From Thioalkalivibrio sp. ALJ7 (lineage in GTDB: Bacteria; Pseudomonadota; Gammaproteobacteria; Ectothiorhodospirales; Ectothiorhodospiraceae), in contig NZ_AQXQ01000012.1 in the NCBI RefSeq assembly GCF_000376865.1, positions 186,001-250,000 on the forward strand: DNA of 64,000 nt, in the 5' to 3' direction. Positions 1,731 through 19,919 of this stretch are shown one piece after another. Each line of letters begins with the position of its first letter. Position 1 is the stretch's first letter. The notes beneath the pieces are model-generated. The model searched no databases, had not been told where the DNA came from, and saw only the letters and a program-made list of their open reading frames with translations. A program made the translations under genes and the position numbers.

Positions 1731-4700
1731 TCATTTAAGTCGAATACCGCGCCGGGCGCGGCCCTTGCCGGGCGTCCCCGACTTTCCTCCCCTCTTGGGG
1801 GAACTACCGCTGTCCTTGCGGTCGGTCTTGCTGCTCGTGGTGGCGGGCTTGGTGGTTCCGCCGGTCTTCTTGTTGGATGCTGTGGAAGTGCGCTTGTTCA
1901 CTGCCCCGGCACTCGTTTGGGTCGCGCTCTTGGAGCCGGCTGCGCGCCGCGAACCACTACCGGAAGTCGTAGACTTCGGACTCGCATCCTTGCCCGCCGC
2001 CTTGGTGTTGGTAGCGCTCGTCTTCCTGGCGGTCGCCCCGGAGGAGCGACCCGCGGGCTTTTTCGCAGTCGAGGGCTTGTCCTGACCCGTAGCCTTGGGT
2101 GGAGCGCTAGAGGCGGTACCTGTTCCGGAGCCCGTGTGGCCAGCGTCCGATTTCGTCGCAGCGGCCGTTTTTTTGGGGGGGCTCTTCCGGGTCGCCGTCT
2201 TCGCCTTTGCGGGCGCCTTCCCAGACTCACGGTTTGGTTTCGGTTTGGGGGCGGAGGTGGCGGTGCGGACACCACTACTCTCCGCAGCCGCCGGGGCCGA
2301 AGCGCGGTTCTGGGCGGAGGCCGAACTCGCGGATTCAGCGCTGGCGTCACGTGGCGATGCCGGTTTCGGATCCTGCTTCGGTGCTGGGTCTGCCGAGCGC
2401 TCGGTCGCCACCACATCGGAGCCGGAGCCCGATCCCGCCGCGGGTGGCGAACCATTGCCACCACCGGCCGGACTGCTTGGGCCTCCGGTGGACGTCGGAC
2501 CGGCCGGGGGCGGGCCGCCGCCATCTCGGTTGCGCCGACGCTCGATAAACGAACGGATTAGGCGCCACACCGCCAGGGCCAGGTCGCGCAGTCCCTCCAG
2601 GAAGGCCAGGGCCAGGCATTTCAGGTACAAGCCGCCATATTGCACGGCCTGAGTCACTGGGCCGCCTTCACGGGGGCCGAAAATGTCCTTGCCTTCGGTT
2701 GCAGCGCCCGGGCCGGATGCGGCCGCCATGCCCGCACCTCCATGGCCGTTACCGTTACCGTTGCCATTACCTGGCGCACATCCCACTGCCGCCTCGCCGT
2801 TTTCATCCAGGCTGGTCGGGCAGAAGGCACGACGTCCGGAGATGCAGCCCAGCGGGATCACCACCAGGGTCAGCAGCGTGGCCACCACCGTCCCGAACAT
2901 CAGCGAGATAGCCATGCCCTGGAAGATGGGGTCAAACAGGATCACGCTGGAGCCGGCCAGCAGGGCCAGCGCGGTGATAATGATCGGACGGGTGCGGGCC
3001 TGGCAGGCCATGATCATCGCGTCGCGTACGTCATGGCCCTCGTCCACCGCCTGGCGACCGAAGTCCACCAGCAGGATCGAGTTCCTGACAATAATCCCCG
3101 CAAGGGCTATGAAGCCGATCATCGAGGTCGCGGTGAACTCGGCGTTCATCAGCCAGTGGCCGGGAATGATGCCGATCAGGGTCAGCGGGATGGGCGCCAT
3201 GATGATGCCCGGCAACACGAAGTTCCCGAACTCCCAGACCACCAGCATGTAGATCAGGATCAATGCGATGGCGAAGGCGATGCCCATGTCGCGGAAGGTC
3301 TCGTAGGTCACCGTCCACTCGCCGCCCCACTCGAACGCAGTGGAGCCATCATTGGGCGGCGGCCCCAGCCAATGGGGTTGCACCTGGCTTCCATCCGGCA
3401 AGCGGTAATCCGCCAGCTGCTCCTGGATTTCGAGCTGACCGTACACCGGTGCGGCCAGGCGACCGACCACCTCGCCGGTCACATATTCCACCGGCCGCAG
3501 ATTCTTGTGATAAATCGGCTCGTCCTGCGGGCGCTGGACAAATTCGCCCAATTCGGCCAGAGGGATCGATCCGCCCTGTTGGGTGAACACCGGCAGCATC
3601 TCCAGCTGCCGGACGTCATTGCGCGTAGCCATTGGCAGGCGCATCTCGATCAGATGCGGTTCGACCAGGGATTGCGCCTTCACGTCACCCAGGATCTGCC
3701 CGCCAATCGCAGTCTCGAGGGTGCGGTTAATGGTCTCTACAGTCACACCGCGCCGCAGGGCCTTGTCGCGATCCACGTCGAAATGCCAGACCTCGTGCGG
3801 CGCTTGCAGGAAGCTGTCCACATCCGCCACGTGCTCAGCACCGGCGAACATGCCCTCAAGGTCGCGAGCCACAGCCCGTCGGGTCTGGGCATCGGGGCCG
3901 TATACCTCGGCGACCACCGATTGCAGAACCGGCGGGCCCGGCGGCATCTCGACCACCTGAATGCGGGCACCAGCAGCCTGCGCCATCGGTGTGAGCAGCT
4001 TGCGCGCCTCGGTAGCAATCTCGTGCGAGGTTCGGCGGCGGTCACCCTTGTCCACCAGCTGCACCTGGATATCGCCCTGCCAGGGCTTGTCGCGCAGGTA
4101 GTAGTGGCGCACCAGGCCGTTGAAATTGAACGGCGAAGCGGTGCCGACATAGGACTGCAGCCCCACGACCTCGTCCATCTCGCGCAGGACGCTGGCCATG
4201 TCATGGCTCAGGGTCGCGGTCTCGGTCAGGGCCGTGCCTTCGGGGAAATTCACCATCACCTGAAATTCGGGCTTGTTGTCCAGCGGCAACATCTTCACGC
4301 GGACATCGGTCGTCATGAACAGGCTGGCCGTCAGGAAGAAGACGACGATGACTCCGATCAGAAAGGCGTAGCCCCGAACCTTGTTGTCCGCCAGCCCCGG
4401 GATCACCGTGCGGTAAAAACGGCCGAGCTTCTCGGCCTGACGGTGCTCCTTGTCCGTGGCCTTTTCCAGATACGCCATGCTCGGGCGCAGGCGCTGGGTC
4501 AGCCACGGGGTGAACACGAAGGCCGCGACCAGCGAGAACAACATGGCGACCGACCCGAGCACCGGAATCGGCTGCATGTACGGACCCATCATCCCGGAGA
4601 CAAAGCCCATCGGCAGCAGGGCTGCGATGACCGTAAACGTGGCGAGGATGGTCGGGTTACCGACCTCGCGCACCGCATCCACCGAGGTCTCGGTATCAAT

Positions 4701-6053
4701 ACCGCGCTTCATTAACCAGCGTCGGTAGATGTTCTCGACCACCACGATGGCGTCGTCGACCAGAATGCCGATGGAGAAGATCAACGCGAACAAGCTGACG
4801 CGATCAATGGTATAGCCCAGCACCCAGGCACTGAACACCGTGAACAGGATCACCACCGGGATCACGATGAGCACCACCAGCGCGGCGCGAATCCCCAGGA
4901 ACAGTCCAACCAGGATGGTCACCGCGAAGGTGGCGATGAACAGCTTGAAGATCAACTCGTTGACCTTCTCGTTGGCGGTCTTGCCATAGTCCCGTGAAAC
5001 CGCTACCTCGACGTTATCCGGGATGACGCTCCCTTTCAGGCGTTCCAGCCGATCGAGAATGTCGTTCGCAACCGTCACGCCGTTACTGCCGGGCTTCTTG
5101 GCGATGGCCAACGTGACCGCCGCCGCACCCTCCGGCGCTGCGTCCGCATCGACGGCCGCGGGACCGGAATAATGCCGCACGAAGCGTTCCAGCTCGCCCG
5201 GGCCATAGGTGACCTCGGCCACATCGCGCAGATAGACCGGTTGCCCGTCACTGACGGAAATCAATAGCTGCTCGAGGTCCGTCGCCCCGGTGAAGAAGCG
5301 CCCGGTGTACACAGCGGTACTCAGTCCATCGCTTTCGATGCGCCCGGCAGACCCCTCGACATTTGCGGACTGCACGGCCTGGGCGATCTGATCCAGGCTG
5401 ACGTCATACCCCGCGAGCCGTTCGGGCAACACTTCAATGCGAAGGCGCTCCTCGCGCCCGCTGACCACGAAGCTCTGGTTGGTATCCGGGACCTCGTTCA
5501 GTTGCTGCTGAGCATCAAGTGCGATCTGCCGGAGAAGGGCATCGTCCACCTCATGCGACCAGAACGTCAGGTTGACCACCGGCACGTCGTCGGCGCCCTT
5601 GGCCTTGACCAGGGGCTCGCTGACGCCCGGTGGCATCAAGTCACGATTGGCGAACAGCTTGTCGTGCACCTTGACTATGGAGGACTCCATCTCCTCGCCG
5701 ACGTCGAACTGCACGGTCACCATCGCCTCGCCGCGATGCGACACGGAGTAGACGTTGTCCACCCCGGAGAGCTCGCTCATCAAGCGCTCCAGTGGTCGCG
5801 CGGCAAGACTGGCCACCTGCTCCGAGGGAACACCCGGATAGGACACCATGATGTCCACCATGGGCACAGAGATCTGCGGGTCCTCCTGGCGCGGAGTGAC
5901 CATCAGCCCAAGGATGCCAATCGCGATACTGGCAAGGAGCAGCAACGGCGACAGCGGCGAGTGGATGAAGGCCGCCGCCATACGCCCGGCGATGCCAGGA
6001 TCGCCGTGCTTCTCCCGGAAACCGGTATTGGATTGTCTGTCGTCTTCGGCCAT
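1731..6053 (-). CDS. RND efflux permease with long histone-H1-like C-terminal extension
   Basis: 1440 residues; a typical RND permease has about 1030-1050. Residues 1-~1070 carry the RND core: TM1 after IHSPLSPLLLLASIAIG, two large periplasmic loops, TM4 with SIGILVDDAIVVVEN (the proton-relay Asp pair near residue 428), and a C-terminal TM bundle ending FGTVVATLLTLVVIPLG. From ~1071 to the stop an extra ~370 residues follow: a GN-repeat linker, an amphipathic helix (YLKCLALAFLEGLRDLALAV), then a Lys/Ala/Ser/Thr/Pro-rich tail with PPKK and SPKR-like motifs. RND C-termini are cytoplasmic, so the tail should face the cytoplasm. No outer-membrane channel gene is adjacent. The substrate is unknown. 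Confidence 0.9.
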   Translation of the reverse strand: MAEDDRQSNTGFREKHGDPGIAGRMAAAFIHSPLSPLLLLASIAIGILGLMVTPRQEDPQISVPMVDIMVSYPGVPSEQVASLAARPLERLMSELSGVDNVYSVSHRGEAMVTVQFDVGEEMESSIVKVHDKLFANRDLMPPGVSEPLVKAKGADDVPVVNLTFWSHEVDDALLRQIALDAQQQLNEVPDTNQSFVVSGREERLRIEVLPERLAGYDVSLDQIAQAVQSANVEGSAGRIESDGLSTAVYTGRFFTGATDLEQLLISVSDGQPVYLRDVAEVTYGPGELERFVRHYSGPAAVDADAAPEGAAAVTLAIAKKPGSNGVTVANDILDRLERLKGSVIPDNVEVAVSRDYGKTANEKVNELIFKLFIATFAVTILVGLFLGIRAALVVLIVIPVVILFTVFSAWVLGYTIDRVSLFALIFSIGILVDDAIVVVENIYRRWLMKRGIDTETSVDAVREVGNPTILATFTVIAALLPMGFVSGMMGPYMQPIPVLGSVAMLFSLVAAFVFTPWLTQRLRPSMAYLEKATDKEHRQAEKLGRFYRTVIPGLADNKVRGYAFLIGVIVVFFLTASLFMTTDVRVKMLPLDNKPEFQVMVNFPEGTALTETATLSHDMASVLREMDEVVGLQSYVGTASPFNFNGLVRHYYLRDKPWQGDIQVQLVDKGDRRRTSHEIATEARKLLTPMAQAAGARIQVVEMPPGPPVLQSVVAEVYGPDAQTRRAVARDLEGMFAGAEHVADVDSFLQAPHEVWHFDVDRDKALRRGVTVETINRTLETAIGGQILGDVKAQSLVEPHLIEMRLPMATRNDVRQLEMLPVFTQQGGSIPLAELGEFVQRPQDEPIYHKNLRPVEYVTGEVVGRLAAPVYGQLEIQEQLADYRLPDGSQVQPHWLGPPPNDGSTAFEWGGEWTVTYETFRDMGIAFAIALILIYMLVVWEFGNFVLPGIIMAPIPLTLIGIIPGHWLMNAEFTATSMIGFIALAGIIVRNSILLVDFGRQAVDEGHDVRDAMIMACQARTRPIIITALALLAGSSVILFDPIFQGMAISLMFGTVVATLLTLVVIPLGCISGRRAFCPTSLDENGEAAVGCAPGNGNGNGNGHGGAGMAAASGPGAATEGKDIFGPREGGPVTQAVQYGGLYLKCLALAFLEGLRDLALAVWRLIRSFIERRRNRDGGGPPPAGPTSTGGPSSPAGGGNGSPPAAGSGSGSDVVATERSADPAPKQDPKPASPRDASAESASSASAQNRASAPAAAESSGVRTATSAPKPKPNRESGKAPAKAKTATRKSPPKKTAAATKSDAGHTGSGTGTASSAPPKATGQDKPSTAKKPAGRSSGATARKTSATNTKAAGKDASPKSTTSGSGSRRAAGSKSATQTSAGAVNKRTSTASNKKTGGTTKPATTSSKTDRKDSGSSPKRGGKSGTPGKGRARRGIRLK

Positions 6054-6153
6054 CGAGCTTGAACAGTCCTGTTGTTAGTCTGGCGTCCCAAACGCCGGGT
6101 TTCCGGCGTGGAGCACCGGCTCGCCTGCCAGGGGCGTGGCCGGGGCCTTTATC

Positions 6154-6170
6154 CCCGGCGCACCGCCGGG
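6154..6170 (-). promoter_or_regulatory. Intercistronic GC hairpin between MFP and RND genes
   Basis: CCCGGCG-CAC-CGCCGGG forms a perfect 7-bp stem with a 3-nt loop in the 126-nt gap between the adaptor stop (6180) and the permease start (6053). There is no T-run, so it is more likely an RNA-stability or attenuation structure than a terminator. Confidence 0.35.
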
Positions 6171-6179
6171 TGTGATGTC

Positions 6180-7373
6180 CTACATGCGACTCCAGGGGTC
6201 GGCGCTACCCCCCGAATCCGGCGCTCGGCTCCCGACCGGTTGCCCGGAGCGCACACCTGCACCTGGCCGCGCCAGGATCTGCATCCCGGGCTCCAGACCG
6301 GAGGTCACCACCACCTGATCTCCGCGAGACCCGCCCAGACGGACCATGCGCACACGCACGTGGCCCTCGCCGTCGAGCACGGCCACGCGTGGCAGCGCCC
6401 CACCGGGGATCAAGGCCGAGCGCGGAATCACCACCCGGTTGCCCGAGGCCTCGCCCTGCGGCAGATGTACGGCCGCATGCATACCCGGACCGCCTCGCAC
6501 ACCCTGGGGTAGATCAAACTTGACCGTCACGGTATGACGTTGCGGATCGGCCAGCGGAAAGATCTGGGCAACCCGGGCCTCAACCTCATCACCGGTATCC
6601 AGGCGCACGTGCACGTAGTCGTCTTCCTGCAGGCCGGCGACCAGCCTCACCGGCACCTGGGCCTCGACGCGGAGGTATTCGACATGACCGAAGGTCAACA
6701 GGGGCTGGCCCGGCTGGACCGTATCGCCCTCTTCCACATGCTTGTGCATCACCAGCCCGTCGAACGGGGCCTCGGAGCGGGTATCGCGGATCGCGGCATC
6801 GAGTTCAGCCACCCGGGCGCGCGCCTGCTCCCAACGCGCCTGGGCCTGGTCCACGCCGATGTAGCGGGAATAGAGGTCCGTACGCCGGTCCAGTGCGGGG
6901 TCGCCCATGCCCATCATCTGTCCCGCCGGCTGGGTGAACATCTGGTCGAACATCGACGGAATCCCCATGCCCGGCATTTGGCCAATGCTCCGCGACTGCG
7001 GTGAGACCACCTCGCGGCCGTACTGCATCTGCGCCTCGCGAATCGCAGCCTCGGTAGTGCGCATCTCGGCCTGGGCGGCCTGGCGCTGAGCCCGCAACCG
7101 GTCATCACTGATCGAGACCAGCACCGAGTCTTGCTCGAAGCGATCACCCTCGGCGCCAGCTACCTGCACCACCCGCCCGGCAGACTGGGCGGTCAGGGTC
7201 ACCTCGCGGTAGGGCACCACGGTCCCGCTTACGGTGCGGGTCGCGGCCTTGTCCGGCTCCACCGTGAGGACGGGCCCGGAGGCATGGGCCATCCCCACCC
7301 CCCCTGAACCCAGACTGATCAGCGGCAGGGTGAGCAAGGCACTCAGGAAGAGTCGAGAGAATCGCTTAACCAT
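6180..7373 (-). CDS. RND periplasmic adaptor (membrane fusion protein)
   Basis: 397 residues from the ATG at 7373 (MVKRFSRLFLSALL..., signal peptide ending near GMAHASG). The order is MFP-typical: a beta-barrel/lipoyl half-motif (SGTVVPYREVTLTAQSAGRV), a helical hairpin around residues 70-185, the second lipoyl half (EAPFDGLVMHKHVEEGD), then beta-barrel and membrane-proximal domains (RVVIPRSALI). A Met/Pro/Gly-rich insert (QMPGMGIPSMFDQMF...QMMGMGDP) in the hairpin is unusual and could bind metal or thiophilic cargo. It is first in the minus-strand unit with the RND permease. A sigma-54 promoter lies about 230 nt upstream, giving a long leader of ~215 nt. The SD is weak (GAGGT, 11 nt from the ATG). 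Confidence 0.88.
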   Translation of the reverse strand: MVKRFSRLFLSALLTLPLISLGSGGVGMAHASGPVLTVEPDKAATRTVSGTVVPYREVTLTAQSAGRVVQVAGAEGDRFEQDSVLVSISDDRLRAQRQAAQAEMRTTEAAIREAQMQYGREVVSPQSRSIGQMPGMGIPSMFDQMFTQPAGQMMGMGDPALDRRTDLYSRYIGVDQAQARWEQARARVAELDAAIRDTRSEAPFDGLVMHKHVEEGDTVQPGQPLLTFGHVEYLRVEAQVPVRLVAGLQEDDYVHVRLDTGDEVEARVAQIFPLADPQRHTVTVKFDLPQGVRGGPGMHAAVHLPQGEASGNRVVIPRSALIPGGALPRVAVLDGEGHVRVRMVRLGGSRGDQVVVTSGLEPGMQILARPGAGVRSGQPVGSRAPDSGGSADPWSRM

Positions 7374-7600
7374 GATCGTCAGCACCTCGCGTCGAAAGCC
7401 GCGATGAGAGAGGTGATCCCACACATACATTCGGGTCGCTGCGCGAGACGGGACGAACCCGCCAGCAGCGACCGGACCGCACACATCCCGGGACCGGGGT
7501 GTACGGCGCTGAAACCCTTTCGGCAGGGGACAGATGCCGGGTGACAACCGAGATGGGTATTCATTACCCCATTTGTAGAAGAACTCATGCCGAACTACAA

Positions 7601-7615
7601 GCAACGTATATGCCA
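7601..7615 (-). promoter_or_regulatory. Sigma-54 (-24/-12) promoter for the MFP-RND unit
   Basis: The minus strand reads TGGCATATACGTTGC, followed by T. This is TGGCA at -24 and TTGC at -12 with exactly 7 nt between TGGC and TTGC, matching the RpoN consensus TGGCAc-N5-TTGC(A/T). It points at the adaptor gene and lies beside a divergently encoded sigma-54 activator. The predicted transcription start is near 7590. Confidence 0.8.
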
Positions 7616-7677
7616 GTATTGTGACATTCTTATTTTTCAATCATTTAATTGTGATGTACTGATATTTAATAGATGAC

Positions 7678-7770
7678 TGTTGCAACACCCCCGTTTCGCG
7701 CTATAACCAAGACAAGGGTTGGCGAAACGGGCAATTCCGAGGTGTTGCAGATGAGCGCGGCGTTGCAACA
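7678..7770. promoter_or_regulatory. Upstream activator sites: TGTTGCAACA palindromes and an inverted repeat
   Basis: There are three related sites: TGTTGCAACA (7678-7687, perfect palindrome), TGTTGCAGAT (7743-7752) and CGTTGCAACA (7761-7770). Between them, CCCGTTTCGC (7690-7699) and GCGAAACGGG (7722-7731) form a perfect 10-bp inverted repeat. They sit 63-170 bp upstream of the sigma-54 promoter, the usual distance for enhancer-binding-protein sites, and also just upstream of the activator gene at 7815, so autoregulation is plausible. Confidence 0.65.
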
Positions 7771-7814
7771 CCACACCGCCTTCGCTGCCCTCCAGATCAC
7801 CACGAGGAGGCAGG

Positions 7815-10078: not shown

Positions 10079-10882
10079 TCACGGATACCCCAACACATCC
10101 TGGTGCCCGACGGTCAGCTCGACATCCCCGGCGGTCAGCGCGACCGTGCGCCTTGCGCCCCACTCGCGCAGGGCCTGCGCGCGTTTCGGGGCCATCTCCG
10201 TGGCGGCCACCACCCAGCCCTCAATCAAGGCACGACCGAGTGACGCCTGGGTCGAACCAACGTGCCAGTCACTCGCACACTGACGAACCCGGTACCCAAG
10301 GGCCTCGAGCCGTACCGCACAGCAGGTCGCCGCCGCAGGTCCCAGGGCACGGCCAAACCCCTTGTCGGATTGCTGATGCCGATTCACTAGCTGTTCGACT
10401 TCTTCATCCAGCGGGTCAGTTTTCGACCAGCGGATACGGCCGTCGTAGCTAAGGGCAAAAAGCACCGCGGCGCCCTGCTGGACACAGGACTCGAGTAATG
10501 GCCTGAGCCACGCCTCCGATACCAGGTCCAGCAGCGCCGAACCGGTTACCAACGCTTCGGTGCCATCCAGCATCCGCGCTGGCTTGTCCCCAAAATCGAC
10601 CGTGCAGGTTTCGACCACCACATCGGGGCGCGGCGCCTGTGCCCGTTCGAGCAATGCCGCATCATGATCCAGCAGGCGCCAGTGCTGGACATTTGCGAGC
10701 CTCAGGGCCAGATAGCGTAAGTTCGAGCCGGTGCCGCTGCCGAGGTCCGTGATCCTCAGTGGCGCGTCCAGACGCTGCCCGGCAAACACCTCACACAGGT
10801 CCGCCACCAAGGCCTGCGGACGGGCGGCGTGATCGGCCGGTTCGCGCAGATCCAGCCAGTCGCGATCGAAGGATTCCGTCAT
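10079..10882 (-). CDS. Class I SAM-dependent methyltransferase
   Basis: 267 residues from the ATG at 10882, which overlaps the stop of the upstream glycosyltransferase as ATGA (translational coupling). SAM-binding motif I is ITDLGSGTGSNLRYLALRL (~42-60), motif II LLDHDAALLERA, and a motif-IV-like VTGSALLDLVSEAWL. The C-terminus carries no recognisable accessory domain. It is last in the MDR / PTPS-like / GT4 / methyltransferase operon, which suggests methylation of a glycosylated small molecule. The substrate is unknown. Confidence 0.82.
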   Translation of the reverse strand: MTESFDRDWLDLREPADHAARPQALVADLCEVFAGQRLDAPLRITDLGSGTGSNLRYLALRLANVQHWRLLDHDAALLERAQAPRPDVVVETCTVDFGDKPARMLDGTEALVTGSALLDLVSEAWLRPLLESCVQQGAAVLFALSYDGRIRWSKTDPLDEEVEQLVNRHQQSDKGFGRALGPAAATCCAVRLEALGYRVRQCASDWHVGSTQASLGRALIEGWVVAATEMAPKRAQALREWGARRTVALTAGDVELTVGHQDVLGYP

Positions 10883-11931
10883 GGTCGCCAGCCGAGCAAT
10901 GCCTGCTCCAGACTCGCTACCGCCTGCTGCCAGTCCGGACAGGCGGCCATCGATGCGCGGCCGGCCTGGCCCATACGGCACCGGGCATCCGGGTCTGCCA
11001 GCAACTGCGAGATAGCCGCGGCCAGGGCCTGGACATCGCCCGGTGGCACCAGCACGCCGGCTTGCTCCGGCACGGTCGTCGGGATGGCTCCACCGTGGGT
11101 ACCGATCACCGGGAGACCACGCGCCATGGCCTCGGTATAGGCGATCCCAAAACCTTCGTAGGCGCTGGCCAGCACAAATAGCGAGGCCCGCTCATACCAT
11201 CCATCCAGCGTGGCATCGTCGCACTCGCCGCCCCACTCGATACGATCTCCCAACCCGGCCCCGAGGACCGCATCCTCCACGCGTTGTACATAACCCGGAT
11301 CGCGGCTGCGCGACCCCACCAGGACCGCGCGCCAGTCGTCCGCCTGTAGCTGGGCGAGTGCCTGCACCAGTTCCAGCTGACCCTTGCGGGGCACGACGGA
11401 GCCGACGCAAAGGATCCGCGGGGGTTCGTCCGGGTCGGGGCCCTTGGCCGGCGGCCGTGACTCCACCCCGGGCGGCACCGCTCGCCGCCGCTCAGCTGAA
11501 ACACCCCAGTCCACCAACTGTCCGGCGGTAAAGGTGCTGGTGGCCACAACCCCGAGGACCTCCTGCACCGCCCGGCGCTCGCTCTCGATCAGCTCCGCCG
11601 CCCGCGCAGGTTCCAGCCCGGTCTCCAACCCTAAAGGGTGATGCAACAGATAGATCAGGCGCAGGCGCGATGCATGACGGGCCAGAACGTCCGGGAAGCC
11701 CCCTGCAGCCAGGCCATCCAACAGGACTGTACGACCGTCGAGAATTCCCGCCAGCGCGGCCTCCAGCACCCGTTCGGCGGCGGCGTTGGGGCCCGGAAAA
11801 TCGCCATCGAGCTCGCAAACCTGCACCACCCAGCCGCGGTTCCGCAGGCCCGCGACCATACGCGCATCGTAGCGATACCCGCCGGTGCGTTGCTCCAGCG
11901 AACCCGGCACTACCAGGAACAGTTCGCGCAT
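10879..11931 (-). CDS. Glycosyltransferase family 4 (GT-B)
   Basis: 350 residues; ATG at 11931, only 5 nt after the PTPS-like stop, without a clear SD, so coupled translation is likely. The N-terminal acceptor domain has GGYRYDARMVAGLRNRGW. The C-terminal nucleotide-sugar domain has LCVGSVVPRKGQLELVQALA and the GT4 E-x7-E motif in EGFGIAYTEAMARGLPVIGT (~270). The ATGA overlap with the methyltransferase gene and the tight spacing make it part of one pathway with its neighbours. It could glycosylate the product of the PTPS-like/MDR pair. Neither donor nor acceptor is known. Confidence 0.88.
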   Translation of the reverse strand: MRELFLVVPGSLEQRTGGYRYDARMVAGLRNRGWVVQVCELDGDFPGPNAAAERVLEAALAGILDGRTVLLDGLAAGGFPDVLARHASRLRLIYLLHHPLGLETGLEPARAAELIESERRAVQEVLGVVATSTFTAGQLVDWGVSAERRRAVPPGVESRPPAKGPDPDEPPRILCVGSVVPRKGQLELVQALAQLQADDWRAVLVGSRSRDPGYVQRVEDAVLGAGLGDRIEWGGECDDATLDGWYERASLFVLASAYEGFGIAYTEAMARGLPVIGTHGGAIPTTVPEQAGVLVPPGDVQALAAAISQLLADPDARCRMGQAGRASMAACPDWQQAVASLEQALLGWRP

Positions 11932-11936
11932 CGCGA

Positions 11937-12335
11937 CTACGGGGCCGCATCGTAGCTGGCCCAGGCGACATGCGACTCATTGAGGGTCACGCACACGGCG
12001 TCCAGATCACGGGCCGAATCGCCCAGCTCACCGGCATGAATAGACCGCGACACCCGCTGGTGCAGTTCGTGGGCCAAGAACTCGGTGGTCGTGTTCTGGC
12101 CGCGGAATTCATCGCGCTCGTCCAGGTTCTGGTAGTTCAGGTCGGCCAGGATCGCCTTGACCACCTCGCTGGCGCGGCCGATATCCACCACCAGCCCGTC
12201 GGCGTCCAGGGCCTGGCGGCGGAAGGTCACATCGACGACATAGGTCGCGCCGTGCAGCTTCTGCGCCGGGCCGAAGGTCTCGCCCTGAAAGCTGTGGGCA
12301 ATCATGAAGTGGTCGCGAACATTCAGGCTGTACAT
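11937..12335 (-). CDS. 6-pyruvoyl/6-carboxy-tetrahydropterin synthase-like protein with altered active site
   Basis: 132 residues; ATG at 12335 with AAGGA 6-7 nt upstream. The fold signature of COG0720 (PTPS/QueD) runs throughout: FMIAHSF, KLHGATYVVDVTF, GLVVDI, LADLNYQNLDE, QNTTTEFLAHEL, and a C-terminal V-E-x-x-x-x-A-x-Y. Key catalytic positions are changed against E. coli QueD: the Cys of CxxxHGH is Ala24, the second zinc His of HGH is Ala30, and the His of the LDH motif is Leu. One zinc His (14) and His28 remain. Canonical PTPS or QueD chemistry is therefore unlikely; a related but different pterin or sugar-like substrate reaction is inferred. It is in an operon with MDR, GT4 and methyltransferase genes. 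Confidence 0.82.
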   Translation of the reverse strand: MYSLNVRDHFMIAHSFQGETFGPAQKLHGATYVVDVTFRRQALDADGLVVDIGRASEVVKAILADLNYQNLDERDEFRGQNTTTEFLAHELHQRVSRSIHAGELGDSARDLDAVCVTLNESHVAWASYDAAP

Positions 12336-12380
12336 CGGGTGTCCTTGAGGGTTGCTGTGGAAGGGGTGGAGCGACGGACG

Positions 12381-13382
12381 TCAGTAACGGATGCGATGGC
12401 ACAGTGTACGCGCGGCCTCAGGACCAGAGACGCGGGCCATCACCTCGGGCAGATCGGTAAACGCATCGTCCCCGGTGATCAGGGCATCCAGGGCCGGGTC
12501 CGATAACAGCGAGAGGGCCAGCGTCAGGCGGCGGCGATAGTCCCAACGCGGGGCGCGTTCCGGCGGGATGCGACCCACCTGCGCACTGCGCAGGGTGAGG
12601 CGGCGCGAGTGGAAGGCTTCCCCCAGTGGCGCGGGTACCTGCTGATCGCCATACCAGCTCATCTCCACCACGCGTGCCTCGACCCCGGCCAGGGCCAGGG
12701 CCTGGACGAGCCCGTCCGGATGGCCGCTGGCATGCAGCACGATATCCAGGTCTTGCCGGGCCGGCTCGACAGCGGCCGCTTCGGGCGTGACCCATGCGAG
12801 CCCAAGCGCACCCGCCACGGCCTCACGCTCGGGATTCGGGTCGATGACCACCACTTCGGTTCCGGGAATCGAACGGAGAAGCCACGCGGCCAAGAGACCC
12901 ACCACCCCGGCTCCGACCACCGCGATCCGGTCCCCGGGGCCCGGCTGGGCATCCCAGACCGCATTGATCGCGGTCTCCATGTTCGCCGCGAGCACCGCGC
13001 GTTCCGAGGGGACCGACTCCGGGATCGGAACGGCCGCCGTGACCGGAACGACATAGGTACTTTGATGCGGATGCAGGCAGAAGACCCGCTGCCCAGGTAC
13101 CCGATCCGGCGCGCCCCCCGCCTCGACCTCGCCTACGCTGATATAGCCGTACTTCACCGGCCAGGGGAAATCACCCGCCTGGAAGGGTGCCCGCATCGCC
13201 TGATACTGGCTCTCGGGCACGCGACCGCGGAACACCAAAGACTCAGTCCCGCGGCTAATCGCCGAGAAGTGGGTGCGCACCCGCAACTCGCCATCCCTCG
13301 GTTCCGCGAGCGGCTCCGAACGCAGTTCGCCACGACCTGGACCCGTGACCCAGAAGGCCTGTTCGGCATCGGGCCGGCTCAC
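12381..13382 (-). CDS. Medium-chain (MDR) oxidoreductase without the catalytic-zinc Cys
   Basis: 333 residues from a GTG at 13382 with GGAG 9 nt upstream; the longer frame lacks another plausible start. The N-terminal GroES-like half contains SAISRGTESLVFRGRVP, where alcohol dehydrogenases have a Cys before GT(D/E); here it is Arg, so the catalytic zinc site is absent. The Rossmann half has RIAVVGAGVVGLLAAWLL and the acidic VVVIDPNPER, suggesting NAD preference. The style resembles BchC-like dehydrogenases. It is first in the operon with the PTPS-like, GT4 and MT genes, 45 nt upstream of the PTPS-like start. It probably reduces or oxidises a hydroxylated side chain of the shared metabolite. 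Confidence 0.82.
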   Translation of the reverse strand: MSRPDAEQAFWVTGPGRGELRSEPLAEPRDGELRVRTHFSAISRGTESLVFRGRVPESQYQAMRAPFQAGDFPWPVKYGYISVGEVEAGGAPDRVPGQRVFCLHPHQSTYVVPVTAAVPIPESVPSERAVLAANMETAINAVWDAQPGPGDRIAVVGAGVVGLLAAWLLRSIPGTEVVVIDPNPEREAVAGALGLAWVTPEAAAVEPARQDLDIVLHASGHPDGLVQALALAGVEARVVEMSWYGDQQVPAPLGEAFHSRRLTLRSAQVGRIPPERAPRWDYRRRLTLALSLLSDPALDALITGDDAFTDLPEVMARVSGPEAARTLCHRIRY

Positions 13383-13521
13383 CGGAAACGCTCCAGCGTG
13401 GCGGGACAGAGCGAGATCATCATCCGCGCAGTGTGGGCGAAGCGCACAATCGGCGGCAACTCTAGCCGGGCGGCGCGGTCGCAAACCCGAGATGCCAACA
13501 CCAGAAGGCTACAATCGCAAC

Positions 13522-14301
13522 ATGGAGTCCTCCTCCGCCAAATCGTGCCAACCTCCAGAGGTCCTGCGGGCAACCCGTGTCTGGGGCGGCGACTGGCTGC
13601 TGTCGGGCCTGATCGGCATCGGCGTCACGGTGGCGCTGATGCTGCACGCCGGGCTGGGAGCCTTGCTACTCATCGGCTATGCCGCGATCTGGGCCGCATT
13701 GGGCGCAGCACTTGTTATCACGACGCGCCCCGAGGCCCTCGCCCCCGGACACCGCGGTCCCGGTCCGGCCAACCGAGTCACCCTGTTGCGCGCTGCGTTC
13801 ACTGCCCCGCTGGGCTCACTGGCATTCGTAGCCCCCGGCACCGGCGAGCCGCTGCTGGCGTTCTGGGTGATCGGCCTTGCGGGCCTGGCGCTGTTGCTGG
13901 ACGGTGTCGACGGTGCCATCGCTCGAAGCACCGGCAACACGACCGCCTTTGGTGCCCGGTTCGACATGGAGCTGGACGCGGCCATGATCCTCGCCCTGTC
14001 GGTGCTGACCTGGCAGATGACCGTAGTCGGCCCCTGGGTGATCCTGATCGGGCTGATGCGCTATGCCTTCATGCTCGCCGCGTGCCCCTGGGCCTGGCTG
14101 GCCGGCGACCTGCCGCCCAGCCGGCGGCGCCAGACCGTCTGCGTAGTACAGACCGTCGTCCTGCTGCTGGTGCTGATACCCGGCCTGCCCGCGTTCGCCG
14201 CAATCACCATCGCCCTGGCCGGACTGCTGGCCCTGAGTCTTTCCTTTGCCGTGGATATCCACTGGCTTTATCGCCACCGACCGGAGGTGTGTCATGACTG
14301 A
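13522..14301 (+). CDS. CDP-alcohol phosphatidyltransferase family membrane protein
   Basis: 259 residues from the ATG at 13522. About six to seven TM helices. The CDP-alcohol phosphotransferase signature is complete: DGVDGAIARSTGNTTAFGAR followed by FDMELDA (D-x2-DG-x2-AR-x8-G-x3-D-x3-D, ~residues 129-155). The enzyme transfers a phospho-alcohol from a CDP-alcohol at the membrane. It is divergent from the MDR/PTPS-like operon and overlaps the start of the YceI gene by 8 nt. The alcohol acceptor is unknown, and phosphatidylglycerol or inositol-type products are both possible. Confidence 0.85.
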   Translation: MESSSAKSCQPPEVLRATRVWGGDWLLSGLIGIGVTVALMLHAGLGALLLIGYAAIWAALGAALVITTRPEALAPGHRGPGPANRVTLLRAAFTAPLGSLAFVAPGTGEPLLAFWVIGLAGLALLLDGVDGAIARSTGNTTAFGARFDMELDAAMILALSVLTWQMTVVGPWVILIGLMRYAFMLAACPWAWLAGDLPPSRRRQTVCVVQTVVLLLVLIPGLPAFAAITIALAGLLALSLSFAVDIHWLYRHRPEVCHD

Positions 14302-14935
14302 CGCCCGCTACACCCGCCCCACCATTTACCTGCACCAGGCGTTTCTGGCCTTTCTGCTCGCAGGCGCCCTCGCCTTGTCGGGCACCGCCGCCCAAGCCAA
14401 CGCCGATCGCTGGGTGATCGACCCCGACCATTTCGCGGTCGGCTTCCTGGTCGATCACGCCGGCTACGCCAAGGTCATGGGGATGTTCCTGGAGGCCGAG
14501 GGCGAGTTCCAGTTCGACCCGGAATCCGGCGAGTTGGGCGACGGCTATTTCGTCATCCAGACCGACAGTGTGTTCACCAACCACGAGGAACGCGACGATC
14601 ACCTGCGTAACGAGGACTTCCTGAACGTGGAGGAGTACCCGGAGATGCGCTTTACCGCCACCCGCTACGAGCCCACCGGGGAAAACACCGGGCGCCTGAG
14701 TGGTGGCCTGGAGCTGCTGGGCGAGACCCGCACCATCCATCTCGACGTGACCATCAACAAGGTCGGGCGCTACCCGTTCCCGCTCGGCGGGCTGTTTGGA
14801 CGTCCCTACGTGCTGGGCGCCTCCATGCGCGGCAGCTTCAATCGCTCGGACTTCGGCATGACCTACGGGCTGACCCGCGACATCGTGGGGGACGAGGTTG
14901 AACTGATCATCGAGTTCGAGGCCCAGCGGCAATAG
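14294..14935 (+). CDS. YceI family periplasmic lipid-binding-like protein
   Basis: 213 residues; ATG at 14294 with GGAGG upstream, overlapping the preceding gene. The signal peptide ends near TAAQANA (~37). The mature domain is the YceI lipocalin-like barrel (WVIDPDHFAVGFLVDHAGYA, FLNVEEYPEMRFTATRYE, GGLELLGETRTIHLDVTI, GSFNRSDFGMTYGL). Family members bind polyisoprenoids or amphiphiles in the periplasm. Coupling to the phosphatidyltransferase suggests carriage of an isoprenoid or lipid product. Confidence 0.9.
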   Translation: MTDARYTRPTIYLHQAFLAFLLAGALALSGTAAQANADRWVIDPDHFAVGFLVDHAGYAKVMGMFLEAEGEFQFDPESGELGDGYFVIQTDSVFTNHEERDDHLRNEDFLNVEEYPEMRFTATRYEPTGENTGRLSGGLELLGETRTIHLDVTINKVGRYPFPLGGLFGRPYVLGASMRGSFNRSDFGMTYGLTRDIVGDEVELIIEFEAQRQ

Positions 14936-16494: not shown

Positions 16495-16615
16495 AGTTGC
16501 GGAAATCATCGGCTCGTGGCAACGGCAGCCGGTGACCCGCCGTTCAGATCACAACCCTCCATCACACGGGTGTCTGGACGATCTTCGACCCGGTCATTGA
16601 ACCGGGTCTTTTTTT
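16495..16615 (+). ncRNA. Candidate small RNA ending in a strong terminator
   Basis: GACCCGGT-CATTGA-ACCGGGTC followed by seven Ts (16587-16615) is a textbook intrinsic terminator, but no plus-strand gene lies upstream of it; the nearest gene on the left is on the minus strand. About 90 nt before it contain possible stems (CGGCT...AGCCG, ACCC...GGGT) and a TATACA-like -10 near 16490. This fits an unannotated sRNA, or a leader attenuator for the NCS2 gene at 16732. The ends are approximate. No other feature is seen in 16361-16731. Confidence 0.4.
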
Positions 16616-16731
16616 GCCTGGTTGTCCGTCCCCAACGACTCACGGGCAGCGCCCAACCAACACGTCCTGGGCTCCCGACAGCACGTGGCTGTTATGATTG
16701 CGCGCTTTCGCCAACCGCGCACAGGGGCACC

Positions 16732-18468
16732 GTGGCCGAAGCTTCCCAGTCGAAGATCCTCTATGAGGTGGACGATCACCCGCCTCCGGTCAAATGCACC
16801 ATCAGTGCGCTGCAGAGCCTGTTGTTGGTCGCACCGACCATCATCATCGCCCCCCTGATCCTGGCCCGCGCCATCGGTCTCGATCTGGCCGCGACCCAGT
16901 GGACCGTATTCGCCGCCCTGATCGGCAGCGCACTTGCCACACTGATTCAGGTCCGCCGCGTCGGCCCGATCGGATCGGGCTACCTGATCTTCATGGGGAC
17001 TTCGACCGCCTACCTGGCCGTGGGCATCGAGGCCGCCCTGGTCGGCGGCATGGCGCTGGTCGGCACACTTGCCGTGCTATCGGCCCCGGTACAATTTCTG
17101 TTCGCGCGCTATCTCGGGTTATTCCGCCGCATCATCACGCCCACGGTCAGTGGGGTGGTGATCATGCTGGTGGTGCTCGGCGTGATCCCCACCACAGCCG
17201 ACATGATGCAGGGTGAAGGAGACTACGAGGGGACCTGGCGGGCGCTGGTGGTGGCCCTGTTCACCCTCGGGTTCACCATTCTCGTTGCGGTCTTCGGCGG
17301 CCGCCTGCTGCGGCTGTGGGCGCCCATCATGGGACTGGGCTCGGGCATCGTGGTCGCGATGATCTTCGGCGTCACGGATTTCTCGGAGGTCACCGAGGCC
17401 GCCTGGTTTGGCCTGCCGCCGCTGGAATGGCCCGGCTTTTATTTCGAGTTCTCACCCACCTGGTTCACGCTGCTTCTGACCTTCGCGATCGTGACCCTGG
17501 TCGGAGCGGTAGAGTCCATTGGCGATACCCAGGTCGCGCAGCGCAACTCCTACCGCACCCCGCGCAAGATCGACCACGACCGCGTGCGCGGCGGGCTGTA
17601 TGCGGACGGCCTGGGCAACATGATCGCCGGCAGCCTGGGCACACTGCCCAACACGACCTATGGCATTGGCGTCTCCTCGATCGAACTGACCGGCATGGCC
17701 GCCCGCCGGGTCGGCTACTACTTCGCCGCCTTTCTCGCGCTGATCGCGCTGATTCCCAAGCTCAACATGCTGATGATCTCGCTGCCGGGCCCCGTCTTCG
17801 GCGCGTTCCTACTCATTTTGCTGGCCCTGTTGTTCGTCGCGGGGATACGCCTGTGCGCCCAGGACGGCCTCAACTACCAGAGCGGCCTGATCATCGGTGT
17901 CGCCTTCTCGACGGGTTTCATCTTCCAGAACGAACTGTTTTTCCACCACCTGATCCCGGAGGCGCTGAGCCCGTTTCTGAATAACGGCGTCTCCACCGGC
18001 GGCACGGTGGCGGTGGCACTCAGCATGATCTTCAACCTGCGGCCTCGCCCGCATCGACGCGCGACCTTCGAGCCCGAGGCGGATTCCCTGCCACAGGTCC
18101 ATGCCATGGCGCAGGAATTCGGCGAAAGCCTGAGCCTGCCGGAAAAGCAATCGGTCAAACTGCAGATCGCCCTGGAAGAGGTCTTCATGCATCTGTCCGA
18201 GCAGGCAGCCCGCGAGCCGGGACGCAGCCGGCCGGTCGATGTACGTCTGGAACGCGAGGGCGAGACGCTGGCGGTGGAATTGATCGATCGCACCGCCGCG
18301 GCCGAGGTCGACGAGGCCGCACTGCGCGAGGCACGCCAGTGGACGGCCAGCGACGAACAATCGCTGCGCGAGCTGGGCCTTTACCTGCTGAACAGCCTGG
18401 CGCAGGACGTTCGCCACATGCGCATGGCCGGGGTCAACTACATCTCGTTCAGCATCCCGCTGCGCTGA
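16732..18468 (+). CDS. NCS2 (xanthine/uracil-type) permease fused to a degenerate HATPase/anti-sigma-like domain
   Basis: 578 residues from a GTG at 16732; the upstream part of the frame runs through a terminator and is excluded. Residues ~20-435 form the NCS2 permease with ~14 TM segments (SLLLVAPTIIIAPLILARA, FMGTSTAYLAVG, TVSGVVIMLVVLGVIP, GAVESIGDTQVAQRN). Residues ~445-578 are soluble and resemble the RsbW/HATPase_c_2 fold: VKLQIALEEVFMHLSEQA at the N-box, then ELGLYLLNSLAQDVRHMRMA. The catalytic Asn and the DxGxG glycines are missing, so ATP binding is doubtful. The substrate is probably a nucleobase or other small anion. The fused domain may regulate transport or bind a partner. Confidence 0.85.
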   Translation: MAEASQSKILYEVDDHPPPVKCTISALQSLLLVAPTIIIAPLILARAIGLDLAATQWTVFAALIGSALATLIQVRRVGPIGSGYLIFMGTSTAYLAVGIEAALVGGMALVGTLAVLSAPVQFLFARYLGLFRRIITPTVSGVVIMLVVLGVIPTTADMMQGEGDYEGTWRALVVALFTLGFTILVAVFGGRLLRLWAPIMGLGSGIVVAMIFGVTDFSEVTEAAWFGLPPLEWPGFYFEFSPTWFTLLLTFAIVTLVGAVESIGDTQVAQRNSYRTPRKIDHDRVRGGLYADGLGNMIAGSLGTLPNTTYGIGVSSIELTGMAARRVGYYFAAFLALIALIPKLNMLMISLPGPVFGAFLLILLALLFVAGIRLCAQDGLNYQSGLIIGVAFSTGFIFQNELFFHHLIPEALSPFLNNGVSTGGTVAVALSMIFNLRPRPHRRATFEPEADSLPQVHAMAQEFGESLSLPEKQSVKLQIALEEVFMHLSEQAAREPGRSRPVDVRLEREGETLAVELIDRTAAAEVDEAALREARQWTASDEQSLRELGLYLLNSLAQDVRHMRMAGVNYISFSIPLR

Positions 18469-18495: not shown

Positions 18496-19149
18496 TCAGT
18501 CGCGGCTACCGCGGATGAGGTTCAGGAACTCGCGGCGGGTGCGGCCATCCTCGCGGAAGGCGCCCAGCATCACCGAGGTCGCCATGGACGAATGCTGCTT
18601 CTCCACCCCGCGCATGGTCATGCACATGTGCTTGGCATCCACCACCACACCAACGCCCTTGGCGTGGGTCACCTGCATCAGGGCCTCGGCGATCTCGCGG
18701 GTCAGGCTTTCCTGGATCTGCAGGCGTGCGGCGAACATGTCCACGATACGGGCGATCTTCGACAGGCCGATTACCTTGCCATCCGGCAGGTAGGCGACAT
18801 GCACCTTGCCAATAATCGGCAACAGGTGGTGCTCGCACAGGGAATACAACTCAATATCGCGAAGCAGCACCATCTCGTCGTTGTCGGAGGAGAACAACGC
18901 CCCGTTCACGATCGAATCGAGGTCCTGGTGGTAGCCGCGCGTCAGGTACTGCATCGCCTTGGCGGCGCGCATCGGCGTATCCAGCAAACCCTCGCGTTGC
19001 GGATTCTCACCCAGTCCCGCGAGAACGGCGCGGTAGTGCTCGGCGAGCTGTTCCGGCGCGGCCAGCGGCGGGTCCGCGGCGTCCCGTGTCGTCGGCTCAT
19101 CAGCCGTACGGGCGTCTACATCCATGGTCAGGTCTTTGTGTTCACTCAT
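18496..19149 (-). CDS. folE: GTP cyclohydrolase I
   Basis: 217 residues from the ATG at 19149; an alternative ATG at 19164 overlaps the upstream stop as ATGA, and neither has a strong SD. It converts GTP to 7,8-dihydroneopterin triphosphate, the first step of folate and pterin synthesis, in the cytoplasm. Zinc ligands are present in [11 protein letters not shown] and [11 protein letters not shown]; the core GVVVDAKH and [13 protein letters not shown] are typical. The first ~35 residues are a non-conserved acidic extension. It follows a DUF3429 gene in the same direction and is divergent from a fatty-acid modification operon. That arrangement parallels light-regulated gene sets that include folE in other gammaproteobacteria. 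Confidence 0.96.
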
Positions 19150-19160
19150 TCTTGCGCTCG

Positions 19161-19919
19161 TCATCGTGAAGCTACCAGCGTAACCGCAAGCCCGGAGGCC
19201 AGGGCCAGAATCGCCCCCACGGTCAGCACCAGGCGCAGGCCTAGATATCCCCACGGCAGTGCCAGGCGCGACAGACTCAGCCGGTCGACCCAAAGTACCC
19301 CGAGGAATAACGCCGCCAGGGTCATCAGGGCCTCCGGCAACGGCTGCAGCACTGCCAGCCACGCCAGAATCGACGGCACCACCGCCCAGACCGGGGCGGC
19401 CAGCGGGCCTACCCGGTGCTGCCGATCCGCCAGGTAGATCCCCCAGTGGATCGCCCCCAGGAACGACAGGATCACCGCACCATAGAGCGCCAGGGCCTCC
19501 AGCGCGAAAGCCTGCCATTCCGGCTGGGCCATCCAGACGCCTGCGCCGAAGAAGGCGAAGGGTATCAGGCCCCCGTATCCGAGCACCTGTAAAACGGATG
19601 CCGGCGCATCCGGCCGCAGACGTTCACCGCGCGCCTTGAGCGCCTGACCACCAAGGTACTCGCGCAACTCCGGAAGCCCCCCGATCACCCCGTCACGCGC
19701 GATGAAGAACGGCAGCACCGAGGCGCCGGTGGCCTGCTGCAGGGCATGGAACTGCTCGCGATTGTGGGCCGAACCCATCCCCCACTCCAGCCGGACCCAT
19801 CGGCCCCGGCTCGTGGCCTCCAGCAACGCCTCGGCATCACGAAAGTCCGACAGTCCGGAGGTAATGCCAACGATATCGTGGTTCTCCAGTGCCGCGCGTA
19901 CTTCTTCCGGCCATTCCAT
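19161..19919 (-). CDS. DUF3429 membrane protein fused to a cysteine-less glutaredoxin-like domain
   Basis: 252 residues from the ATG at 19919, chosen because AGGAGGG lies 5-6 nt upstream; a start at 19949 has none. Residues ~12-90 follow the glutaredoxin pattern ([19 protein letters not shown] ... [20 protein letters not shown]), but the redox CxxC is replaced by SGLS, so it cannot act as a thiol oxidoreductase. Residues ~105-250 contain about five TM helices of the DUF3429 family ([35 protein letters not shown]). It is translationally close to folE (10-nt gap). A role in membrane or redox-stress physiology is inferred from context only. Confidence 0.78.

What the first reader, a model, noticed from the sequence alone, without database searches (positions are those of the whole stretch)
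10079..14935. Uncharacterised small-molecule cluster: MDR, PTPS-like, GT4, methyltransferase, with CDP-alcohol transferase and YceI opposite
Four minus-strand genes are tightly coupled (45 nt, 5 nt, then ATGA). A pterin-fold enzyme plus glycosyl- and methyl-transferases recalls pteridine glycosides such as cyanopterin, but the PTPS-like member has lost catalytic residues. The opposite operon could provide a lipid carrier. The product is unknown.
Basis: partly seen in the sequence, partly recalled or inferred. Interest (0 to 1): 0.72.

Follow-up and report, generated by a model that had tools for sequence, protein, structure and literature searches.

The report
Split riboflavin-branch PTPS-IV biosynthetic cluster
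These genes are half of a conserved, widespread bacterial pathway that appears to start along the vitamin B2 (riboflavin) route and then build an unknown sugar-bearing, methylated small molecule, possibly sent to or anchored in the membrane.

Summary
The minus-strand operon (MDR, PTPS-like, GT4, methyltransferase) and divergent CDP-alcohol transferase/YceI pair are real, coupled as reported. The PTPS-like protein is a close homologue of SCO6650 (PDB 3d7j) with the FGPAQ signature of PTPS-IV, a subfamily without a published product in my searches. The cluster is conserved: of 99 PTPS-IV loci, 97 have the MDR, 95 GT4, 87 MT, 74 CDP-alcohol transferase, 69 a RibD_C reductase, 42 a GTP cyclohydrolase II (RibA), 42 a creatininase. 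In this genome the second half (FkbM, creatininase, RibA, RibD_C) lies on another contig. Among 199 Pseudomonadota genomes, 14 of 15 with PTPS-IV and 0 of 184 without carry the cluster-type RibD_C.

Best reading: GTP goes through riboflavin-type first steps to a 2-amino-4-oxopyrimidine that escapes deamination; MDR and PTPS-IV reshape it, MT and GT4 decorate it, and accessory proteins (CDP-alcohol transferase, flippase-like, periplasmic) may anchor or export it. All reactions and the product are inferred. A FolE/cyanopterin route and an F420 role are not supported. A GCH/RibD_C neighbourhood was noted in 2017; the fuller gene set, the retained split and the RibA-Tyr/creatininase coupling appear new.

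The parts
12381..13382 (-). MDR-type dehydrogenase, BchC-like, lacking the usual catalytic zinc ligands; first gene of the operon
   Evidence: start codon inferred from the sequence
11937..12335 (-). PTPS-IV protein (SCO6650/3d7j family), FGPAQ, catalytic residues lost, E120 kept
10879..11931 (-). GT4 glycosyltransferase
10079..10882 (-). class I methyltransferase, starts in an ATGA overlap with GT4
13492..14301 (+). CDP-alcohol phosphatidyltransferase with complete motif; start 13492 or 13522
14294..14935 (+). YceI-like protein, probable periplasmic accessory, overlaps the CDP-alcohol transferase by 8 nt
13383..13491 (.). 109-nt divergent intergenic region between the two gene sets; presumed promoters, not tested

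Best explanation
The operon is one half of a dispersed biosynthetic system (PTPS-IV system). A dedicated GTP cyclohydrolase II (RibA), in some lineages probably helped by a creatininase-family formamidase, opens GTP to 2,5-diamino-6-ribosylamino-4(3H)-pyrimidinone 5'-phosphate. A RibD_C-type reductase without a deaminase domain reduces it to the ribityl compound, diverting it from riboflavin while the 2-amino group is still there. PTPS-IV holds the 2-amino-4-oxopyrimidine (or pterin) ring through its invariant Glu, and with the zinc-less MDR acting on the ribityl chain it reshapes the molecule; one speculative step is oxidation of the 2'-OH and closure onto the 5-amino group to a dihydropterin. 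MT methylates, GT4 adds a sugar. Where a CDP-alcohol transferase is present, as here, the product may be joined to a lipid, and flippase-like, sulfatase-type, MdoH or YceI/cytochrome b561 proteins may handle it at or outside the membrane. SHOWN: gene content, conservation, co-occurrence, retained split, residue losses and conservation. INFERRED: every reaction and the product.
For: 99-locus survey. Profile over 199 genomes: cluster-type RibD_C in 14 of 15 PTPS-IV genomes and 0 of 184 others, score gap 229.9 vs 162.8 bits (Fisher 1.4e-20, not corrected for relatedness; only the 14 best candidates per genome were scored). The one exception, G141, runs off a contig end while another contig begins with RibA-creatininase-FkbM. 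In the genus 25 of 30 genomes have PTPS-IV and full-length RibD_C: 10 within 5 kb, 15 apart but both kept. Own genome: FkbM-creatininase-RibA-RibD_C on contig C8. RibA zinc Cys intact in 44 of 44; all 9 RibAs without Tyr105 have a creatininase in the same locus. Creatininase metal-ligand positions invariant in 11 of 11 (ligand identities recalled). Best PDB sequence match of RibD_C: a 2,5-diamino-6-ribosylamino-pyrimidinone-phosphate reductase, 6p8c. Published precedent for a creatininase-family formamidase in riboflavin synthesis (PMC9478397). E120 99/99. CDP-alcohol transferase motif 74/74.
Against: No product or activity is known. 19 of 35 Tyr105-type RibAs also have a creatininase in the locus, so its role there is unexplained. 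Creatininases occur in 30 of 184 PTPS-IV-negative genomes and the cluster ones fall in two distant clades. The CDP-alcohol transferase is missing from 7 of 15 PTPS-IV genomes and present in 2 of 184 others: no core lipid anchor. RibA is near PTPS-IV in only 42 of 99 loci. The own-genome RibA is under the TIGR00505 cut-off (190.8 vs 205.85 bits) though over NF001591, and RibD_C is under TIGR00227 and TIGR01508 cut-offs though over Pfam's. PTPS-IV lacks a known catalytic set. Two Streptomyces plasmids carry PTPS-IV without any other cluster gene.
Confidence: 0.55

Rival explanations
1. One reading: a pteridine glycoside made from FolE-derived dihydroneopterin triphosphate, with the PTPS-like protein as a changed pterin enzyme and GT4 as glycosyltransferase (cyanopterin-like).
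For: PTPS fold with the ring-binding Glu kept; a GT4 and an MT in the operon; FolE lies 4 kb away in the window.
Against: FolE is near PTPS-IV in 3 of 99 loci whereas RibD_C is in 69 and RibA in 42; RibD_C tracks PTPS-IV over genomes; catalytic residues lost.
Confidence: 0.12
2. PTPS-IV is not an enzyme but a ligand-binding or sensing protein; the cluster makes a glycolipid or other glycoconjugate whose core has nothing to do with pterins, and the riboflavin-type genes serve something else such as flavin supply for secretion.
For: Catalytic residues lost; many membrane or extracytoplasmic accessories: CDP-alcohol transferase 74, flippase-like 54, YceI 27, sulfatase-type 26, MdoH 7 of 99 loci.
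Against: PTPS-IV and the MDR are the most constant pair (97 of 99), more so than the lipid genes; the RibD_C link is close to one-to-one.
Confidence: 0.12
3. The system belongs to F420 or another deazaflavin pathway, as stated without data for PTPS-IV in PMC5041015 (passage read).
For: GCH II/RibD_C products are upstream of deazaflavins; that published remark; G228 has a CofH-like gene in pieces (208 and 106 bits).
Against: No CofH match over the cut-off in any of 15 PTPS-IV genomes, and the own genome's best is 22 bits.
Confidence: 0.05
4. A toxoflavin/pseudoiodinine-like antibiotic branching from the riboflavin precursors.
For: Shared use of GCH II and methyltransferases (PMC9911603, passages); the system is sometimes on plasmids.
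Against: Known clusters use a RibD deaminase, WD-40 and sulfatase-modifying-factor proteins and none of PTPS, MDR or GT4 is named in the passages read; the system is in all 23 good genomes of the genus, unlike a typical sporadic antibiotic.
Confidence: 0.08

Closest known systems
PTPS-IV subfamily of COG0720 (SCO6650, PDB 3d7j)
   Same: E 1.2e-47 over 131 residues; FGPAQ signature; cyclohydrolase PF00925 and RibD_C in the neighbourhood as noted in PMC5445326 (passages).
   Different: The MDR-GT4-MT-CDP-alcohol transferase-flippase-like set, its splitting across the genome and the RibA/creatininase coupling are not in the passages I read.
First steps of riboflavin synthesis, archaeal/fungal order (reduction before deamination; ArfB/BrbF formamidase)
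   Same: GCH II, a RibD_C reductase without deaminase domain, and in part a creatininase-family hydrolase.
   Different: No deaminase, lumazine or riboflavin synthase is annotated in the ten plasmid loci read (not searched by profile); MDR, PTPS-IV, MT and GT4 instead. The genome keeps separate second copies of RibA and RibD_C.
Toxoflavin / pseudoiodinine clusters
   Same: Branch from GCH II products; methyltransferases.
   Different: RibD with deaminase, WD-40 and sulfatase-modifying-factor proteins; no PTPS, MDR or GT4 named in the passages read.
Cyanopterin / biopterin glucoside synthesis (recalled)
   Same: A PTPS-fold protein and a glycosyltransferase.
   Different: Uses FolE and a catalytic PTPS-II; here PTPS-IV without catalytic residues, and RibA.
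Mycofactocin cluster (recalled)
   Same: MftE is the best-scoring NCBIfam model for the two cluster creatininases scanned; a glycosyltransferase.
   Different: Both are below the MftE cut-off (104.7 and 141 vs 172 bits); other mft genes were not searched.

Membership tests
PTPS-IV (COG0720) | FGPAQ signature | tested here: met
   Window has FGPAQ; F21 99/99, G22 99/99, P23 95/99, A24 99/99, Q25 99/99; signature from PMC5445326
PTPS-IV (COG0720) | neighbourhood with PF00925 and PF01872 | tested here: met
   RibD_C in 69 and RibA in 42 of 99 loci; in the own genome both lie together on another contig
PTPS-I / QueD | catalytic Cys in CxxxHGH, zinc His, Asp-His pair | tested here: not met
   Aligned with own QueD: Cys->A24, His->A30, Asp-His->N67-Y68; QueD model 44.6 vs cut-off 89.25 bits
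PTPS-II / cyanopterin-type route | CxxxxxHGH motif; FolE as source | tested here: not met
   Motif absent; FolE near in 3 of 99 loci
F420 biosynthesis | CofH in the same genomes | tested here: not met
   0 of 15 PTPS-IV genomes over cut-off; G228 alone has a strong match, in pieces
GTP cyclohydrolase II (RibA) | three zinc Cys; family score | tested here: met
   Cys 44/44; NF001591 cut-off passed by 2 of 2 scanned, but TIGR00505 by 1 of 2 (own-genome copy 190.8 vs 205.85 bits)
GTP cyclohydrolase II (RibA) | Tyr105 (E. coli numbering; role in releasing formate recalled) | tested here: inconclusive
   Tyr 35, Met 5, His 4 of 44; the own-genome copy has Tyr
AFRPP formamidase (ArfB/BrbF) | creatininase-family metal ligands and equivalog score | tested here: inconclusive
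   E11, H13, D22, H96, E149 invariant in 11/11; ArfB model 26.5 and 37 vs cut-off 180 bits; no assay
2,5-diamino-6-ribosylamino-pyrimidinone-phosphate reductase | RibD_C without deaminase domain; acts on the 2-amino substrate | tested here: inconclusive
   261-276 aa, only the reductase half of the bifunctional RibD model matched; rib_reduct_arch 117.4 vs 186.45 bits; best PDB match 6p8c
CDP-alcohol phosphatidyltransferase | D-x2-D-G-x2-A-R-x8-G-x3-D-x3-D | tested here: met
   All motif residues 74/74
CDP-alcohol phosphatidyltransferase | identity of the acceptor alcohol | not testable with these tools
   needs an assay
Zinc-dependent MDR alcohol dehydrogenase | catalytic zinc ligands Cys and His (positions recalled) | tested here: not met
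   S43 and Y80 in 97/97 at those positions
Mycofactocin biosynthesis | MftE equivalog score; other mft genes | tested here: not met
   MftE 104.7 and 141 vs cut-off 172 bits; other mft genes not searched

The most novel reading that the evidence does not exclude
The system makes a so far unseen class of membrane-anchored or periplasmic cofactor or lipid: a glycosylated, methylated pterin or diaminopyrimidine built from the riboflavin branch and, where the CDP-alcohol transferase is present, joined to a phospholipid, serving redox chemistry outside the cytoplasm (YceI, cytochrome b561 and flippase-like partners) in Pseudomonadota, Actinomycetota, Gemmatimonadota and Acidobacteriota.
Probability: 0.2. 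Interest if true: 0.88.

Novelty: new variant of a known kind. Interest (0 to 1): 0.63.

Why it matters
It would be a new branch off the riboflavin route, would give a function to the orphan structure 3d7j, and makes an unpublished F420 claim for PTPS-IV testable. The split in this genus names which distant genes must be deleted or expressed together.

Tried and rejected
FolE/cyanopterin as main reading: rejected; FolE near in 3 of 99 loci and catalytic residues lost. F420: disfavoured; no CofH over cut-off in 15 genomes, though G228 has one in pieces. Creatininase as a strict marker: rejected; in 30 of 184 PTPS-IV-negative genomes and in two distant clades. CDP-alcohol transferase as core: rejected, 8 of 15. 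Purine permease-HATPase neighbour (16516-18468) as a member: rejected; relatives near PTPS-IV only in the window and L033. MT fold search: many unrelated small-molecule methyltransferases, no substrate hint. MDR fold search: polyol/threonine/alcohol dehydrogenase-type matches, TM about 0.7-0.8, no substrate hint. Open clustering of neighbours gave one extra widespread family, a membrane sulfatase-like protein in 26 of 99 loci (its Pfam sulfatase score is below the cut-off); the other groups listed were mostly flanking genes shared by near relatives, or frames on the wrong strand.

Literature: ten searches found no paper naming a product for this cluster; the library holds open-licence papers only. 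Read: passages of PMC5445326, PMC5041015, PMC9911603, PMC3509567, PMC2853524; abstract and passages of PMC9478397. Spoonamore et al. 2006 on S. coelicolor GCH II proteins was seen only as a title in a reference list; that SCO6655 has Met at the Tyr position and makes the formyl compound, and that SCO6650 lacks zinc and PTPS activity, is recalled. Phillips et al. 2012 was seen only as a reference.

Caveats on counts: the 99 loci are the window, 10 plasmid loci (of 21 plasmid records hit), the 80 best of at least 592 contig matches (so biased to near relatives) and 8 genus loci. L064/L148 and L065/L147 hold identical creatininases and are probably the same loci from two collections. Many contigs are cut short, so absences are upper bounds. 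L143 and L144, fetched without PTPS, were left out of the 99 but count among the 44 RibAs. Three of the 11 creatininase-free actinobacterial RibA loci (L073, L107, L120) are on short or cut contigs. The MDR/GT4 positions use gene ends within 2 kb.
Full report
OBSERVATION. The six genes exist as described. Minus-strand gaps are 45 nt (MDR-PTPS), 5 nt (PTPS-GT4) and an ATGA overlap (GT4-MT). On the plus strand the CDP-alcohol transferase and YceI overlap by 8 nt; the divergent region to the MDR is 109 nt.

WHAT THE PTPS-LIKE PROTEIN IS. Its only PDB sequence match at E 0.001 is SCO6650 (3d7j), E 1.2e-47 over 131 residues. It carries FGPAQ, the signature given for PTPS-IV in PMC5445326 (passages). 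That paper saw a cyclohydrolase domain (PF00925) and RibD_C (PF01872) in this subfamily's neighbourhoods and assigned no product in the passages read. PMC5041015 (passages) says PTPS-IV is involved in F420, as unpublished. Aligned with the genome's own QueD, the catalytic Cys, one zinc His and the Asp-His pair are A24, A30 and N67-Y68, while the Glu that holds the pterin ring (role recalled), E120, is 99/99.

THE SYSTEM. PTPS-IV relatives were taken from plasmids (21 records; ten read with annotation) and from genome contigs (592 confirmed stretches, limit reached, best 80 kept). Profile HMMs over 99 PTPS-IV loci gave: MDR 97, GT4 95, MT 87, CDP-alcohol transferase 74, RibD_C 69, LPG_synthase_TM flippase-like 54, creatininase 42, RibA 42, FkbM 27, YceI 27, MdoH 7, cytochrome b561 5, FolE 3. 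A membrane sulfatase-like protein is in 26 of 99. MDR ends within 2 kb upstream of PTPS-IV on its strand in 97 of 99, GT4 within 2 kb downstream in 93 of 99, MT after GT4 in 84 of 99; the CDP-alcohol transferase is on the strand opposite to the MDR in 68 of the 74 loci that have it. As a check, in the whole 64-kb window no RibD_C, RibA, creatininase, FkbM, flippase-like or MdoH match was found.

THE SPLIT. Searches of the own genome gave two RibD_C and two GCH II genes. The second copies lie side by side on contig C8 with a creatininase and an FkbM methyltransferase (L143; FkbM 3642-4421, creatininase 4453-5259, RibA 5699-6844 minus, RibD_C 6994-7779; add 107999 for C8 coordinates). Relatives G010, G012, G016, G018 and G027 have RibD_C, creatininase and FkbM in one cluster with PTPS-IV. 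Of 30 genomes of the genus, PTPS-IV is in 28 and full-length cluster-type RibD_C in 26; 25 have both (in G014 the PTPS-IV gene is cut by a contig end). Of these 25, 10 have them within 5 kb and 15 on different contigs or about 500 kb apart on one contig (G001, G029); I counted these by hand. Among the 23 good-quality genomes PTPS-IV is in 23 and RibD_C in 22. Another split is seen in G072: RibD_C, FkbM, YceI, CDP-alcohol transferase and MdoH about 62 kb from MDR-PTPS-GT4-MT. In G001, RibA and RibD_C are adjacent, without creatininase or FkbM beside them. Keeping both halves after linkage is lost argues for one pathway, though the 15 genomes may go back to a single event.

PHYLOGENETIC PROFILE. 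In 199 Pseudomonadota genomes PTPS-IV is in 15. Cluster-type RibD_C, set apart from ordinary RibD by a score gap (229.9 vs 162.8 bits), is in 14, all PTPS-IV positive. The missing one, G141, has PTPS-IV near a contig end, and another contig begins with RibA-creatininase-FkbM-MdoH: an assembly gap is likely. The CDP-alcohol transferase is in 8 of 15 and 2 of 184 others. The creatininase is in 10 of 15 and 30 of 184. Fisher values ignore relatedness.

CHEMISTRY. RibA paralogues keep the three zinc Cys in 44 of 44. The residue equivalent to E. coli Tyr105 is Tyr in 35, Met in 5, His in 4. All 9 non-Tyr cases have a creatininase in the locus, against 19 of 35 Tyr cases (over all loci Fisher 0.016). 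Among actinobacterial loci alone it is 9 of 9 versus 0 of 11 (grouped by hand; Fisher 6e-6; some of the 11 are on short contigs). From recall, the Met-type S. coelicolor enzyme stops at the formyl compound; a creatininase-family formamidase for that compound is published for Rhizobiales and relatives (PMC9478397). So a formamidase role is plausible where Tyr is missing; where Tyr is kept, as in the own genome, it is open. Actinobacterial and other cluster creatininases form distant clades, so the partner may have been recruited more than once. RibD_C is a reductase without deaminase, closest by sequence in the PDB to 2,5-diamino-6-ribosylamino-pyrimidinone-phosphate reductase. The likely precursor is therefore the 2-amino ribityl pyrimidine phosphate, taken before deamination. 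The MDR model matches polyol, threonine and alcohol dehydrogenases but has S43 and Y80 in 97/97 where zinc enzymes usually have Cys and His (recalled). Its best NCBIfam model is BchC, below cut-off, which suggests oxidation of a secondary alcohol without zinc. Oxidation of the ribityl 2'-OH would let the 5-amino group close a dihydropterin ring; this is inference only. The GT4 profile best matches Tll1590 and D-inositol-3-phosphate glycosyltransferase-type chains; the MT is a class I fold. The CDP-alcohol transferase motif is complete in 74/74.

ALTERNATIVES. FolE/cyanopterin is not supported. F420 is not supported: no CofH over the cut-off in 15 genomes, one genome (G228) with CofH-like pieces. 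Toxoflavin-like antibiotics share GCH II but differ in the rest. A non-enzymatic PTPS-IV is not excluded.

NOVELTY. Known: the PTPS-IV name, the 3d7j structure, and a cyclohydrolase/RibD_C neighbourhood. Not found in ten searches of an open-licence library: a product, the fuller gene set, the retained split or the RibA-Tyr/creatininase coupling. I rate it a new variant of a known kind, with a fair chance of a new product class.

Noticed in passing
window 1731-6053 (-): RND-type transporter reading frame with a long low-complexity A/K/S/T/P-rich C-terminal tail, roughly 270 residues by eye.
   Followed up: no
window 16516-18468 (+): Xanthine/uracil permease family protein fused to a C-terminal HATPase_c_2 domain; relatives near PTPS-IV only on the Thiodictyon plasmid L033, two copies.
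   Followed up: partly
window 18496-19518 (-): GTP cyclohydrolase I (FolE) near, but not part of, the conserved cluster.
   Followed up: yes
L034 and L038 (Streptomyces plasmids): PTPS-IV genes without the rest of the cluster, with MBL-fold and cupin genes nearby.
   Followed up: no
L087:15425-17341 and 25 other PTPS-IV loci: Membrane sulfatase-like protein recurring near PTPS-IV in 26 of 99 loci, actinobacteria included.
   Followed up: partly
L160 (G233) and L161 (G218): Cluster-like CDP-alcohol transferase with flippase-like and GT4-like genes nearby but no PTPS-IV: possibly a related lipid system.
   Followed up: no
G228:C156:8308-9319: CofH-like F420 gene in several pieces in a PTPS-IV genome.
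   Followed up: no
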